Source: Xanthobacteraceae bacterium
GTDB lineage: Bacteria; Pseudomonadota; Alphaproteobacteria; Rhizobiales; Xanthobacteraceae
Length of the DNA: 64,000 bases
Assembly (NCBI GenBank): GCA_028290465.1
Contig: JAQGJU010000027.1
Span: forward strand, 62,001-126,000
Direction of reading: 5' to 3'
Shown: one piece after another, positions 16,103 to 47,377 of the stretch
Layout of the letters: each line of letters starts with the position of its first letter
How positions within the stretch are numbered: position 1 is the stretch's first letter
Notes under the pieces: model-generated
What the model saw: the letters and a program-made list of their open reading frames with translations, nothing else
Database searches by the model: none
Told to the model about the DNA's origin: nothing
Made by a program: the position numbers and the translations under genes

Positions 16103-17616
<1,514 letters not shown>

Positions 17617-22226: not shown

Positions 22227-22253
22227 GAGATAGTTGACTGAGTCAAATATCTC
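22227..22253. promoter_or_regulatory. 27-bp palindromic operator and promoter of the MarR-GNAT gene
   Basis: The central 13-mer TTGACTGAGTCAA is perfectly palindromic. Flanks GAGATA and TATCTC extend the symmetry to 12 of 13 base pairs, which is the usual form of a MarR-family operator. On the minus strand its right arm doubles as a -35 element (TTGACT, 22246-22241), and CATGAT at 22224-22219 lies 16 bases further on as a -10. Transcription would then begin almost at ATG 22212, giving a leaderless message repressed by its own product. Confidence 0.65.
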
Positions 22254-22833
22254 GGGAGCCGAGCAACACGACGCCGCTGCGCAGCGTGACGAGGCGTTTA
22301 CCGCCGAGTCGGCGCAGCAGCCCACGCTCGGCGTCCGGACCAGTGTGGCCGCGGAGTTCGAGATAGAACCGCTTGGCGATCAGCAGGCCCTGGTCGGGAT
22401 GCGGGCGCAGCGCGATCGACGTCGCGACGAACCACAGCGCCTCCATCAAAGCGGGCCGCAGCGTGTCGGGCGAGGGCGCGCGGCGGAACACGGCGGCCAG
22501 TCTGTCGGCCCGTCCGCCGATCTCCGCCGCCTCGATGAAGCGCCGAACCTCGGCGACCCAGCCCGGATCCAGTACGGCCCCCGGCCGCAGGAACAGCAGC
22601 CACGGCGCGCGGGCCGACGCGGCCGCATCGGCAAGGCGCTGGCCCAGCGGCGCGTCGGACGACATCCACCGGCAGCCGGCAACGTCCGCGACCGCCGCCG
22701 TATCGTCGGTTGAACCGCTATCCGCCACGATGGCTTCGCTGACGACGCCAGCGGTCGCGCCCGGAACCAGCGCGGCCAACGTCGCGACCAGCCGATGCGC
22801 ATCGTTGCGCGTGGCGATGACCACGCTCAGCAT
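22243..22833 (-). CDS. Family 2 glycosyltransferase-like protein
   Basis: This 196-aa protein has a GT-A nucleotide-sugar-binding fold: MLSVVIATRNDAHRLVATL at the N-terminus, VADSGSTDDTAAVA as the first acidic loop, and WLLFLRPGAVLDPGW in place of the usual DxD region (the DxD aspartates are replaced by RPGAVLD). It is shorter than typical GT2 enzymes (about 230-300 aa) and probably binds UDP-sugar weakly or differently. The stop codon overlaps the operator of the downstream MarR-GNAT gene. Confidence 0.75.
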   Translation of the reverse strand: MLSVVIATRNDAHRLVATLAALVPGATAGVVSEAIVADSGSTDDTAAVADVAGCRWMSSDAPLGQRLADAAASARAPWLLFLRPGAVLDPGWVAEVRRFIEAAEIGGRADRLAAVFRRAPSPDTLRPALMEALWFVATSIALRPHPDQGLLIAKRFYLELRGHTGPDAERGLLRRLGGKRLVTLRSGVVLLGSRDI

Positions 22834-22921: not shown

Positions 22922-22970
22922 GAGCATGATCCCGAAAAGTGGGTACCGGTTTTCGGACAAGGTCATGCTC
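22922..22970. repeat. Dispersed hairpin repeat, copy A
   Basis: Outer arms GAGCATGA / TCATGCTC and inner arms CCGAAAA / TTTTCGG surround the apical segment GTGGGTACCGG. Three other copies in this window keep the apex but change both arms together. It lies between the glycosyltransferase and DUF3551 genes, both on the minus strand. Confidence 0.8.
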
Positions 22971-23351: not shown

Positions 23352-23366
23352 GTTCTTGTTTTGTTC
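23352..23366 (+). promoter_or_regulatory. LexA (SOS) box before the radical-SAM gene
   Basis: The site GTTCTTGTTTTGTTC matches the alphaproteobacterial LexA consensus GTTC-N7-GTTC exactly. It ends 24 bases before the ATG of the radical-SAM gene, where a repressor would cover the promoter. Confidence 0.72.
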
Positions 23367-23390
23367 TCAACGTCGTTCTAGGTTCGAATC

Positions 23391-24605
23391 ATGGCCCGAT
23401 CCTCCGCTGCCCGCAGACTGCCCGATGTTCACCCGGCCGAGGCAACGCCTCCGGCGAATTCTGGCGCGCCTGACGCCAGTTCTAACGCCTCTATGCCGGC
23501 GCTGGCGCCGGTATCGATCGAGGGGATCGGCACCGCGGCGGTCGAGCGCGAGCGGCGGCGCGGCCGTGGCGCGCAGTCCAATGCGTCCGGCCGTTATGAA
23601 GGGGTCGCCCGCGTCGCGTTCGACGATGGCTGGCAGAGCCTGGAAGAACTGCCGCCGTTCCAGACCAGCGTGACCCTGGACGCGACCCGGAAAGTGATCA
23701 CCCGCAACGAGTCACCCGACATCTCGTTCGACCGCTCGATCAATCCGTATCGCGGCTGCGAGCATGGTTGCGTGTACTGCTTCGCGCGTCCGACCCATGC
23801 CTATCTCGGGCTGTCGCCGGGCCTTGATTTCGAAACCAAGCTGTTCGCCAAGCCGAATGCCCCGGAGCTGTTGGAGCGCGAACTGGCGGCGCCCGGCTAC
23901 GAGCCGCGCACCATCGCGATCGGTACCAACACCGATCCGTATCAGCCGATCGAGCGGCAGCATCAGATCATGCGCGGCATTCTCGAAGTGCTGGAGCGCG
24001 TCGGCCATCCGGTCGGCATCGTGACCAAATCGGCGCTGGTGACGCGCGACATCGACATCCTGTCGCGTCTCGCCAAACGCAATCTGGTCAAGGTGGCGCT
24101 GTCGGTGACCACGCTCGATCCGGCGCTCGCGCGTACGATGGAACCCCGCGCGGCGACGCCGTCGCGCCGACTTGAGGCGCTGCGCCAATTGTCGGCCGCC
24201 GGCATTCCGACCACCGTCATGGTGGCACCCGTCATCCCGGCCATCAATGATGCCGAGATCGAGCGCATCCTGGATGCGGCGGCGTTCGCCGGCGTGAAGA
24301 GTGCCGGCTACGTGCTGCTGCGGCTGCCGTTGGAAGTCAGGGATCTGTTCCGCGAATGGCTGCTGGCCAATTACCCGGACCGTTTCCGCCATGTGTTCAA
24401 GCTGATCCGCGATATGCGCGGCGGTAAGGATTACGACTCGGCCTGGGGCACGCGGATGAAGGGCGCCGGTCCCTATGCCTATCTGATCGGCCGCCGCTTT
24501 GAGATGGCGTGCGAGCGATACGGCCTCAATCTCAACAAGGCGCGGCTGAGCACCGAACATTTCGAGAAGCCGAAGAAGCAGGACGCGCAGCTGAGTTTGT
24601 TTTGA
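23391..24605 (+). CDS. PA0069-family radical SAM protein (SPL-like)
   Basis: This 404-aa radical S-adenosylmethionine enzyme has the 4Fe-4S motif C-x3-C-x2-C as RGCEHGCVYCFARPTH. It is followed by a TIM-barrel with TNTDPYQPIE, VGIVTKSALVTRDIDIL and VKVALSVTTLDPALAR, and it ends NKARLSTEHFEKPKKQ. These are features of the PA0069/Rv2578c group, which is related to spore photoproduct lyase. The Ala/Pro-rich first 50 residues are variable. A LexA box upstream suggests DNA-damage induction and a possible role in lesion repair, which is inference. A decayed copy of its 3' end lies at 32105-32147. Confidence 0.88.
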   Translation: MARSSAARRLPDVHPAEATPPANSGAPDASSNASMPALAPVSIEGIGTAAVERERRRGRGAQSNASGRYEGVARVAFDDGWQSLEELPPFQTSVTLDATRKVITRNESPDISFDRSINPYRGCEHGCVYCFARPTHAYLGLSPGLDFETKLFAKPNAPELLERELAAPGYEPRTIAIGTNTDPYQPIERQHQIMRGILEVLERVGHPVGIVTKSALVTRDIDILSRLAKRNLVKVALSVTTLDPALARTMEPRAATPSRRLEALRQLSAAGIPTTVMVAPVIPAINDAEIERILDAAAFAGVKSAGYVLLRLPLEVRDLFREWLLANYPDRFRHVFKLIRDMRGGKDYDSAWGTRMKGAGPYAYLIGRRFEMACERYGLNLNKARLSTEHFEKPKKQDAQLSLF

Positions 24606-32104: not shown

Positions 32105-32147
32105 CTGTTCCGCGAATGGCTGATGCGTGCGAGCGATACGGGCTGAA
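32105..32147 (+). pseudogene. Decayed fragment of the radical-SAM gene 3' region
   Basis: CTGTTCCGCGAATGGCTG is identical to 24345-24362 of the intact radical-SAM gene. It is followed directly by ATGCGTGCGAGCGATACGG, which matches 24504-24523 with one base lost. Translation gives LFREWL joined to CERYGLK, with about 141 bases deleted between them. It marks the right edge of the catabolic block. Confidence 0.62.
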
Positions 32148-32219
32148 ACGTCCATCGCATCTATGCTCAACCGTCTGGCTATGGCACGGTTCACATCACA
32201 GTGTGTGGGTGGACGACGC

Positions 32220-34106
32220 ATGGCGGAAGCGCAACTGATCGGCTGGCTGGATCGTCCGGTGGACGCAACCGATCACGTTCTCGGTCAGGATGCGGCCGAG
32301 ATCACGCTGGTCGAATACGGCAGCTACGCCTGTCCGTATTGTCGGGCCGCCAACGAGCGTATCGCCGAGATCCGCGACCAGTTCGGCGACCGGCTGCGAT
32401 ACGCATTCCGCCACAAGCCGCTGACCGGCAGCGACATCGCCCGCCGCGCCGCGGCACTGGCCGAACGCAGCCGCGATCCCGAGCAGTTCTGGAACGCCCA
32501 TGTCACGCTGATGACGCGGTCCGGGTCGCTGACCGAGGACGATCTGGTCGCGGTCGCCAAAGATCTCGGCGTCGAACTCGCCGATGCCAATGCCGATGCC
32601 GGTTCTGATCCGGCCGCCATGGCGGCCGCTGCCGCAGCGCGGGCGCGCGTCGACGCCGACGAGCGCAGCGCCAAGGCCAGCGGCGTGATGATCACGCCGA
32701 CCTTCTTTATCAACAGCCGCCGCTATGACGGGCCGTGGGACGAAAGCTCGTTCGCGGACGCGATCCTCCAACCGCTCGGCCATCGGGTGCGCGCATCGGC
32801 ATTGGATTTCGCCAGTTGGGCGCCGTCGACCGGCGTGCTGCTGCTGCTGGCCAGCATCGTCGCGGTGGCGCTGACCAATTCGCCGATGGGCCCGGCCTTC
32901 GAGGCGTTCTGGCAGCAGCCGTTCGGCTTCAGCCTCGGCGATGCCGGCTTCCACATGTCGCTGCGGCATTGGATCGACGATGGCTTGCTCAGCATCTTCT
33001 TTCTGGTGGTCGGGCTTGAGATCAAGCGCGAGTTCACCATCGGCCATCTGTCCAGCCGGCGCTCGGCGGCGCTGCCGGTCGCCGGGGCATTCGGCGGCAT
33101 GGTGGCGCCGGTGTTGCTGTATCTGTCGGTCATTCCATCGGGGCCGTGGGCGCACGGCTGGGGCGTGCCGATGGCCACCGACACCGCGTTCGCGGTGGCG
33201 CTCTTGGTGATGCTGGGATCGCGGGTGCCGGTGGAGCTGCGCATTTTTCTCACCGCCGCCGCGATTGTCGACGACATCGGCGCCATCATCGTGGTCGCGC
33301 TGTTCTATTCGGGCGATCTGAATTTCAGTTACCTGGTCGCTGCTGTCGCGTGTGCTGGCATGCTGGTGATGCTGAACCACTCCGGCGTCTACCGCGTGCT
33401 GCCCTATCTGCTGGTCGGGGCTGGCCTTTGGGCCTGCGTCCATGCCGGCGGCCTGCACGCCACGCTGGCCGGCGTGATCCTGTCGCTGGTCATTCCAACG
33501 CGGCCGCCGGCCAACCTGAAGGCGCTGACCACGCAGGCCAGCACAATCATCGCCACGGAATCGCGGCAGGGCGACCACTTTCTGCGTCACGGCCCGTCGC
33601 TGCCGGCGTTGCGCGCGCTTGACGCCATCCACGACCGCATCGAATCGCCGGCGGCGCGCGCGCTACGGCGCATCGAGCCGTGGTCGAGCTATCTGGTGCT
33701 GCCGCTGTTCGCGCTGGCCAATGCGGGCGTCGTACTGAACGCGCAGGCGTGGACCGGCCATGGCACGCTGTCCTTGGCGATCGGCCTCGGCTTGGTGCTC
33801 GGCAAGCCGCTCGGCATTGTGGCGGCGTCGGCGCTGGCGGTGTGGATCGGCGCCGCCGTGAAGCCGCGCGAATATTCCTGGCGCCAGCTCGGCGGCGCCG
33901 GCGCGCTGGCCGGCATCGGCTTCACCATGTCGCTGTTCATCGCCGGGCAGGCGTTCCCGACGCCCTCGGATTTCGCCGCCGCCAAGATCGCGGTGTTCGC
34001 GGCCTCGGTGCTGGCGGCCGTGGTCGGCGTCGCCGTGCTGTGGAGCGCCAAGTCGCCGGAACCGGAGGCCAGCGAGCCGGAGGGAAAGGGGAGTCGGGTC
34101 ACGTAA
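32220..34106 (+). CDS. nhaA: Thioredoxin-domain / NhaA Na+:H+ antiporter fusion
   Basis: This 628-aa protein couples an N-terminal DsbA-like thioredoxin domain (residues about 8-185, redox motif [13 protein letters not shown], cis-Pro [14 protein letters not shown]) to a full NhaA antiporter (about 190-605). NhaA landmarks are [34 protein letters not shown] and the ion-binding Asp pair in [15 protein letters not shown]. Eleven or so hydrophobic segments follow. NhaA exchanges Na+ for H+ across the inner membrane. The start at 32220 ([11 protein letters not shown]) is chosen; upstream residues belong to the radical-SAM remnant. Confidence 0.92.
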
Positions 34107-34186: not shown

Positions 34187-34939
34187 ATGAGTCGTTCCCC
34201 GTCCAAGCCACCCGCCGCCCGGCTGCCGCTGCCCGAGATCGAGATCCGGCCGAGTTTCGCGCGCGAGCGCGCCGCGATGAAGCGCGGGGTGTGGCCGGTC
34301 GCCGGCTGCGACGAAGCCGGCAGGGGCCCGCTCGCCGGCCCGGTGGTCGCGGCGGCCGTGATCCTCGATCCGAAGCGCATTCCGCGCGGGCTGGACGACT
34401 CCAAGAAGCTCACGGCGGAGCAGCGCGAGATCCTATTCGAGCGGATCTGCGCGCGCGCCGAAGTCGCGGTGGCGTTCGCGCCGCCGGAGCGCATCGACCG
34501 CGACAATATTCTGCGCGCCTCGCTGTGGGCGCTGTCGCGCGCGGTGGCTTCGTTGCCGGTCCGGCCGCAACTGGTGTTCGTCGATGGCCGCGACCGCATC
34601 GAGGCGTGCTGCGACTGCGAGGCGGTGATCGGCGGCGACGCGCTGGTGCTGTCGATCGCGGCGGCCTCAATTGTGGCCAAGGTAACCCGCGACCGTCTGA
34701 TGCGGCGGCTCGGTCTGGCGCATCCGGGTTACGGTTTCGAGCAGCACAAAGGTTATGGCGTGCCCCAGCATGTCGCGGCGCTGGGCCAGTTCGGCGCCAC
34801 CATCCACCATCGGCGTTCGTTCGCGCCGGTCTTTGCCCGCTGTCAGGCGGAGCTGGAGGCGGCGACTTCCCTGGAGGCGAGGTCGGTCTTGGAGGCCACG
34901 TCCGCCTTGGTCCCCCCCATCAGCTTGTTGCCTCAATAG
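34187..34939 (+). CDS. rnhB: Ribonuclease HII
   Basis: This 250-aa enzyme cleaves RNA primers or single ribonucleotides in DNA. Catalytic motif [14 protein letters not shown] has Asp42 and Glu43, the third Asp lies in LVFVDGRD, and the fourth in VTRDRLM. DDSKKL and [14 protein letters not shown] are also typical. An Arg/Pro-rich N-terminal extension of about 35 residues precedes the core, as in other Hyphomicrobiales. Confidence 0.95.
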
Positions 34940-47330: not shown

Positions 47331-47377
47331 GAGCGCGTTCAGCAAAAGTGGGTACCGGTTTGCGTCCGAACGCGCTC
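47331..47377. repeat. Dispersed hairpin repeat, copy C
   Basis: Outer arms GAGCGCGTTC / GAACGCGCTC and inner GCAAA / TTTGC surround GTGGGTACCGG, the same apex as copy A with different arms. Confidence 0.78.

What the first reader, a model, noticed from the sequence alone, without database searches (positions are those of the whole stretch)
23352..24605. An SOS box before a PA0069-family radical-SAM gene
GTTC-N7-GTTC matches the alphaproteobacterial LexA consensus exactly, 24 bases before the ATG. The PA0069 group is related to spore photoproduct lyase and has no settled function. SOS control would point to a DNA-lesion repair role in non-sporulating bacteria.
Basis: partly seen in the sequence, partly recalled or inferred. 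Interest (0 to 1): 0.6.

Follow-up and report, generated by a model that had tools for sequence, protein, structure and literature searches.

The report
SOS-controlled radical-SAM repair-type gene
A bacterial gene for an uncharacterised iron-sulfur enzyme carries, just ahead of its start, the switch that turns genes on when DNA is damaged; the same arrangement is kept across most of the Proteobacteria sampled, so the gene is very probably a standard DNA-damage-response gene whose exact repair job is still unknown.

Summary
GTTCTTGTTTTGTTC lies at 23352-23366, 24 nt before the ATG of a 404-aa PA0069-family (NF033668) radical-SAM gene. One such match in the window is unremarkable (5 found, 1.8 expected), but conservation is decisive. 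All 80 nearest relatives keep the box (79 exact, one with 1 mismatch). So do 91 of 98 wider Alphaproteobacteria, against 0.4% of control windows. In other proteobacterial classes 27 of 40 orthologues instead carry the E. coli-type LexA box, and one a Xanthomonas-type box. The family therefore follows each lineage's own LexA motif, which makes LexA control nearly certain, although it has not been tested experimentally here. The box covers the predicted -35. A conserved -10 places the start of transcription at or near the ATG, so the mRNA is probably leaderless. The repair role is partly supported. Control by SOS points to DNA damage, but the family keeps only the three cluster cysteines and lacks the hydrogen-donor Cys of spore photoproduct lyase. 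Its closest fold matches are radical-SAM enzymes in general. SOS control of 'splB'/COG1533 was already predicted in alpha- and beta-Proteobacteria in 2012. The finding is real and solid but mostly already anticipated; the substrate remains open.

The parts
23352..23366 (+). LexA box (GTTC-N7-GTTC), GTTCTTGTTTTGTTC
   Evidence: Sequence and pattern search; conserved in 80/80 close and 91/98 wider alphaproteobacterial orthologues
23356..23361 (+). Predicted -35 hexamer TTGTTT, lying inside the LexA box
   Evidence: Inference from the box-anchored alignment of 89 orthologues; TTGATT/TTGTTT/TTGCTT dominate
23379..23384 (+). Predicted -10 hexamer TAGGTT, 17-nt spacer, 6 nt before the ATG; predicted transcription start at or near the ATG (leaderless mRNA)
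   Evidence: TAnnnY in the 12-nt slot in 44/64 orthologues, control 6%; mode at -12 from ATG; Shine-Dalgarno core in only 11/64
23391..24605 (+). PA0069-family radical-SAM protein, 404 aa; 4Fe-4S motif C123-X3-C127-X2-C130
   Evidence: NF033668 573 bits, PF04055 72 bits; the three Cys invariant in 138/138
34187..34939 (+). rnhB (RNase HII), the usual downstream neighbour of this gene in related Alphaproteobacteria, here about 9.6 kb away
   Evidence: PF01351; downstream on the same strand in 46/98 alphaproteobacterial loci, about half within 100 bp
22243..22833 (-). Divergent glycosyltransferase (TIGR04283-like), a conserved neighbour upstream
   Evidence: TIGR04283 66.9 bits, below its cut-off of 182; a divergent homologue upstream in 41/98 loci

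Best explanation
The gene is a member of the LexA (SOS) regulon. In undamaged cells LexA binds GTTC-N7-GTTC and covers the -35 hexamer and part of the spacer, which blocks RNA polymerase. After DNA damage, RecA filaments trigger LexA self-cleavage and the gene is transcribed from a start at or very near its AUG, giving a leaderless mRNA. The product is a 4Fe-4S radical-SAM enzyme that most likely acts on damaged DNA (or its nucleotides) by 5'-deoxyadenosyl-radical chemistry. It does so without the cysteine hydrogen donor of spore photoproduct lyase, so the substrate or the quenching step must differ. The box, its conservation, its switch to the local LexA motif in other classes and the cysteine pattern are shown. 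Repression by LexA, promoter use and the leaderless start are inferred. Action on DNA lesions is inferred mainly from regulon membership.
For: Exact box in 79/80 close relatives and a 1-mismatch box at the same place in the last. Box in 91/98 wider Alphaproteobacteria against 3/836 control windows, and CTGT-N8-ACAG in 27/40 other-class orthologues against 2/431. One orthologue has TTAG-N6-TACTA. Named examples: S. meliloti, Sphingomonas, Paracoccus, Methylobacterium and Azospirillum with the alpha box, Aeromonas caviae with CTGTATATATAAACAG. LexA is present in this genome and boxes precede recA, lexA, imuA, radA, parC, dnaE and ssb. 101/103 PA0069-positive but 66/89 PA0069-negative alphaproteobacterial genomes have LexA. 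Promoter anatomy. Literature: splB predicted SOS-regulated in alpha- and beta-Proteobacteria (PMC3323433); SplB/COG1533 SOS-regulated in several species, citing the P. aeruginosa SOS study (PMC8565304); radical-SAM vnz_31145 bound by LexA and mitomycin-induced in Streptomyces (PMC9380542).
Against: No expression or binding data for this organism. Orthologues in two alphaproteobacterial genomes that have LexA lack the box (L215, L230), as do 12 of 40 in other classes within the scanned window (of these L265 has a box just outside it). No direct evidence ties the enzyme to DNA: no DNA-binding domain was found, and the structural model is poor (mean pLDDT 54).
Confidence: 0.82

Rival explanations
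1. The enzyme is a true spore-photoproduct-lyase-like direct-reversal enzyme that repairs 5-thyminyl-5,6-dihydrothymine or a near relative, as the published 'splB' label implies.
For: Best Foldseek hit of the model is SPL (4fhg, E 1.5e-4); SPL gives the longest alignments in VIA-align (233-243 residues); published annotations call these genes splB.
Against: SPL hydrogen-donor Cys (Gt C140, in A-C-T-S-D) corresponds by motif to T179 of the invariant-TD motif G-T-N-T-D, and no fourth Cys is conserved in 138 members. Z-scores of SPL are tied with LipA, SuiB and NifB. The family profile finds no SPL in the PDB by sequence, whereas an SPL-like protein from a genome that also has PA0069 finds it at 1e-60.
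Confidence: 0.12
2. The gene is SOS-regulated but the enzyme does not repair DNA; it modifies RNA, a protein or a nucleotide as part of the damage response (for example a checkpoint or translation-related modification).
For: Radical-SAM enzymes do many such reactions; the model matches LipA, NifB and SuiB as well as SPL; SOS regulons also hold non-repair genes (established knowledge).
Against: Frequent adjacency to rnhB, a nucleic-acid repair gene, and deep conservation in SOS regulons fit DNA better; no positive evidence for another substrate.
Confidence: 0.25
3. The box is a chance match or binds another regulator.
For: The bare motif occurs 143 times in the genome and 5 times in the window, 1.8 expected.
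Against: Conserved at fixed spacing in 80/80 and 91/98 orthologues and replaced by the local LexA motif in other classes.
Confidence: 0.02

Closest known systems
LexA regulon of Alphaproteobacteria (GTTC-N7-GTTC; recA, lexA, imuAB-dnaE2, parE, splB)
   Same: Same box, AT-rich core, box over the promoter, same genome has boxed recA/lexA/imuA/ssb; splB already listed as a predicted member (PMC3323433)
   Different: Nothing fundamental; here the splB-type gene is identified as the PA0069 family, and the promoter is probably leaderless
PA0069 family radical SAM protein (NCBIfam NF033668)
   Same: 573 bits over 1-348 of the model, all family-invariant residues present
   Different: Variable 56-residue N-terminal extension outside the model
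Rv2578c family radical SAM protein (NF038135) of Actinobacteria; S. venezuelae radical-SAM protein vnz_31145 (its Rv2578c-family membership not tested)
   Same: Homologous radical-SAM core (232 bits); vnz_31145 is bound by LexA and mitomycin-induced (PMC9380542)
   Different: Below the family cut-off (430 bits); different LexA motif
Spore photoproduct lyase (TIGR04070, TIGR03886; PDB 4FHC)
   Same: Radical-SAM fold, CX3CX2C cluster, a conserved (S/T)-D motif
   Different: No conserved hydrogen-donor Cys, no significant sequence match; real SPL-type proteins are rare in Alphaproteobacteria and can coexist with PA0069 as separate genes

Membership tests
LexA/SOS regulon (alphaproteobacterial type) | GTTC-N7-GTTC in the promoter | tested here: met
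   Exact, 23352-23366, over the predicted -35
LexA/SOS regulon (alphaproteobacterial type) | Box conserved before orthologues, and replaced by the lineage's own LexA motif elsewhere | tested here: met
   80/80, 91/98; CTGT-N8-ACAG in 27/40 others
LexA/SOS regulon (alphaproteobacterial type) | Genome encodes LexA and boxed core SOS genes | tested here: met
   LexA 179 bits; boxes before recA, lexA, imuA, dnaE, ssb
LexA/SOS regulon (alphaproteobacterial type) | LexA binding and induction by DNA damage | not testable with these tools
   Needs EMSA/ChIP and expression data
PA0069 family (NF033668) | Score over the curated cut-off | tested here: met
   573 against 360 bits
Radical SAM superfamily | CX3CX2C cluster motif and PF04055 domain | tested here: met
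   C123, C127, C130 invariant in 138/138; PF04055 72 bits
Spore photoproduct lyase | Score over TIGR03886/TIGR04070 cut-off | tested here: not met
   No hit to either model in the NCBIfam scan of the protein; no TIGR03886 match anywhere in the genome
Spore photoproduct lyase | Conserved hydrogen-donor cysteine (Gt C140) | tested here: not met
   No fourth conserved Cys in 138 members; position maps by motif to T179 (alignment by motif only)
Spore photoproduct lyase | SPL-specific fold similarity | tested here: inconclusive
   Z 12.3, tied with LipA 13.1, SuiB 12.8, NifB 12.7; low-confidence model
Spore photoproduct lyase | Repair of 5-thyminyl-5,6-dihydrothymine | not testable with these tools
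   Enzyme assay needed

The most novel reading that the evidence does not exclude
The PA0069 family is a core proteobacterial SOS enzyme that reverses or processes a DNA lesion other than the spore photoproduct, with radical-SAM chemistry that needs no cysteine hydrogen donor: an undescribed direct-repair activity in ordinary, non-sporulating bacteria.
Probability: 0.35. Interest if true: 0.8.

Novelty: new member of a known kind. Interest (0 to 1): 0.42.

Why it matters
A widely conserved gene of unknown substrate is under LexA control across most of the Proteobacteria sampled, even where the LexA motif has changed completely. That makes 'which lesion does this radical-SAM enzyme act on?' a concrete question, with a clear induction condition and clear deletion phenotypes to look for. 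It also warns that the 'splB/photoproduct lyase' label carried by these genes is not backed by the known catalytic residues.

Tried and rejected
Chance box: rejected by conservation. Close phage homologue: none in the phage collection, best hits under 37% identity; the two long viral-contig hits (L280, L281) lie at contig ends and were not pursued. SPL family elsewhere in this genome: none. Sequence search against solved structures with the single protein: only chance hits; with a family profile: SkfB at 9e-4, no SPL. Structure prediction from 45 close homologues: poor N-terminal half, so no active-site reading was attempted; a second job was not run because the more diverse loci came from a source not on the tool's allowed list. 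A Cys at position 172 seen in 43/138 members was considered as a hydrogen donor and rejected as not conserved (C/P/V scattered in both alpha and other classes). PA0069 itself appears in only one held paper, on an unrelated topic. The primary P. aeruginosa, Caulobacter and Verrucomicrobia SOS papers are not held, so they are cited only through PMC8565304.

Full report
Check of the observation. The motif GTTCTTGTTTTGTTC is at 23352-23366 on the + strand and the ATG of the ORF 23391-24605 follows after 24 nt. An in-frame TAG at 23379 means that no earlier start is possible. The protein (404 aa) matches NF033668, PA0069 family radical SAM protein, with 573 bits (cut-off 360), and the Radical_SAM domain PF04055. 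The bare 15-mer pattern is not rare: 5 in the window where shuffles give 1.8, and 143 in the 5.5-Mb genome against 112 for the reversed control pattern. One site alone would prove little.

Conservation. Of the 80 nearest relatives in other genomes (71-82% identity), 79 have an exact GTTC-N7-GTTC just before the gene, mostly 23-24 nt from the ATG. The last (L058) has ATTCTTGTTATGTTC at the same place. In a wider sample from many families of the class, 91 of 98 have the exact box on either strand within about 260 nt upstream, against 3 of 836 equal-sized windows elsewhere in the same loci. Five of the seven others have a one-mismatch version. In 40 orthologues from other classes of the phylum, 27 have the E. 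coli-type LexA box CTGT-N8-ACAG in the same place (2 of 431 control windows). One further such box (L265) lies outside the scanned window, and one orthologue has TTAG-N6-TACTA, the Xanthomonas-type motif (tests). Loci are related, so the p-values (1e-113, 7e-32) overstate independence, but the change of motif with lineage cannot come from inertia. Named examples are S. meliloti, Sphingomonas, Paracoccus, Methylobacterium and Azospirillum (alpha box) and Aeromonas caviae (CTGTATATATAAACAG).

The SOS system in this genome. One LexA passes the family cut-off. Boxes precede recA, lexA, imuA, radA, parC, dnaE and ssb, most of them with an AT-rich core (genes named from their translations). Across 192 alphaproteobacterial genomes, 101 of 103 with PA0069 over the cut-off also have a LexA match, against 66 of 89 without PA0069. 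Both exceptions are fragmented assemblies whose PA0069 genes keep the box. Genome size confounds this test.

Promoter anatomy (inferred). Anchoring 89 orthologues on the box shows a conserved TA 12-13 nt downstream of it. Of 64 with the ATG at 20-27 nt, 44 carry TAnnnY in the -10 slot (6% in control windows), most often at -12 from the ATG, and only 11 have a Shine-Dalgarno core. In the window this reads TTGTTT (23356-23361, inside the box) - 17 nt - TAGGTT (23379-23384) - 6 nt - ATG. LexA would sit on the -35, and transcription would start at or near the A of the ATG, giving a leaderless mRNA. This was not tested experimentally.

Neighbourhood. In related Alphaproteobacteria the gene is followed on the same strand by rnhB (RNase HII) in 46 of 98 loci, about half within 100 bp, so the two may share the SOS promoter there. 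A divergent glycosyltransferase lies upstream in 41. In this genome the glycosyltransferase is retained, but rnhB is 9.6 kb downstream at 34187-34939, beyond a block of unrelated genes.

What the enzyme does. Only the three cluster cysteines are conserved in 138 of 138 members. Spore photoproduct lyase needs a further cysteine as hydrogen donor (established for that enzyme; C140 in the Geobacillus structures, whose sequence reads A-C-T-S-D). The corresponding family motif is G-T-N-T-D with an invariant T-D, so the cysteine is replaced (alignment by motif, an inference). A model from 45 homologues is poor in the N-terminal half (mean pLDDT 54). Its best Foldseek hit is SPL, but the structural Z-scores of SPL, lipoyl synthase, SuiB and NifB are tied, and a family profile does not reach SPL by sequence. 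A clear SPL-family protein in one alphaproteobacterial genome is a separate gene beside that genome's PA0069. The family is therefore not filed as a spore photoproduct lyase. That it acts on damaged DNA remains the likeliest reading, from regulon membership and from the rnhB neighbour.

Prior knowledge. Sanchez-Alberola et al. 2012 (PMC3323433) predicted SOS control of 'splB' in alpha- and beta-Proteobacteria with multiple chromosomes and did not see it in the gamma genomes they studied. PMC8565304 lists SplB (COG1533) as SOS-regulated in several species, citing the P. aeruginosa SOS study. In Streptomyces venezuelae a radical-SAM gene is a ChIP- and RNA-seq-supported LexA target (PMC9380542). 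Aravind et al. 2013 also tie SplB-like proteins to SOS operons (PMC3765255). From memory only: PA0069 is in the LexA regulon of P. aeruginosa. That the published 'splB' of Alphaproteobacteria is the PA0069 family is an inference: true SPL-family genes are rare in the class (1 of 241 over cut-off) while PA0069 is in 103 of 192.

Verdict. A correct and well-founded observation. The regulatory claim is nearly certain and largely anticipated. The repair claim is plausible, the photoproduct-lyase kinship is doubtful, and the substrate is open.

Noticed in passing
22934-22954 (and a 2-mismatch copy at 47343-47363): Palindromic intergenic repeat GAAAAGTGGNNACCGGTTTTC; 67 exact copies in this genome against 0 for the reversed control pattern, so a dispersed repeat family.
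   Followed up: partly
34187-34939: rnhB, the usual downstream partner of the PA0069-family gene, is separated from it here by about 9.6 kb holding a TctC receptor, a LacI-type regulator, an amidohydrolase, a 3-hydroxyisobutyrate-dehydrogenase-type gene and a thioredoxin-Na+/H+ antiporter fusion: a likely insertion into a conserved gene order.
   Followed up: partly
16103-17242 (-): CcrM-like DNA methylase (N6_N4_Mtase plus RAMA domain).
   Followed up: no
32127-34106 (+): Fusion of a DsbA/thioredoxin-like domain with a Na+/H+ antiporter (NhaA type) in one 659-aa ORF.
   Followed up: no
L118:2465 (G000 contig C35:3664-3678): GTTCTTATTTTGTTC 19 nt before radA, suggesting SOS control of radA in this genome.
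   Followed up: no
L117:2488-2502 (G000 contig C22:126587-126601): Strong T-rich LexA-type box GTTCTCTTTTTGTTC 17 nt before a 91-aa ORF with CxxC pairs and unknown function, a candidate small SOS protein.
   Followed up: no
L215 and L230: PA0069 orthologues in genomes that have LexA but with no recognisable box upstream: apparent losses of SOS control.
   Followed up: partly
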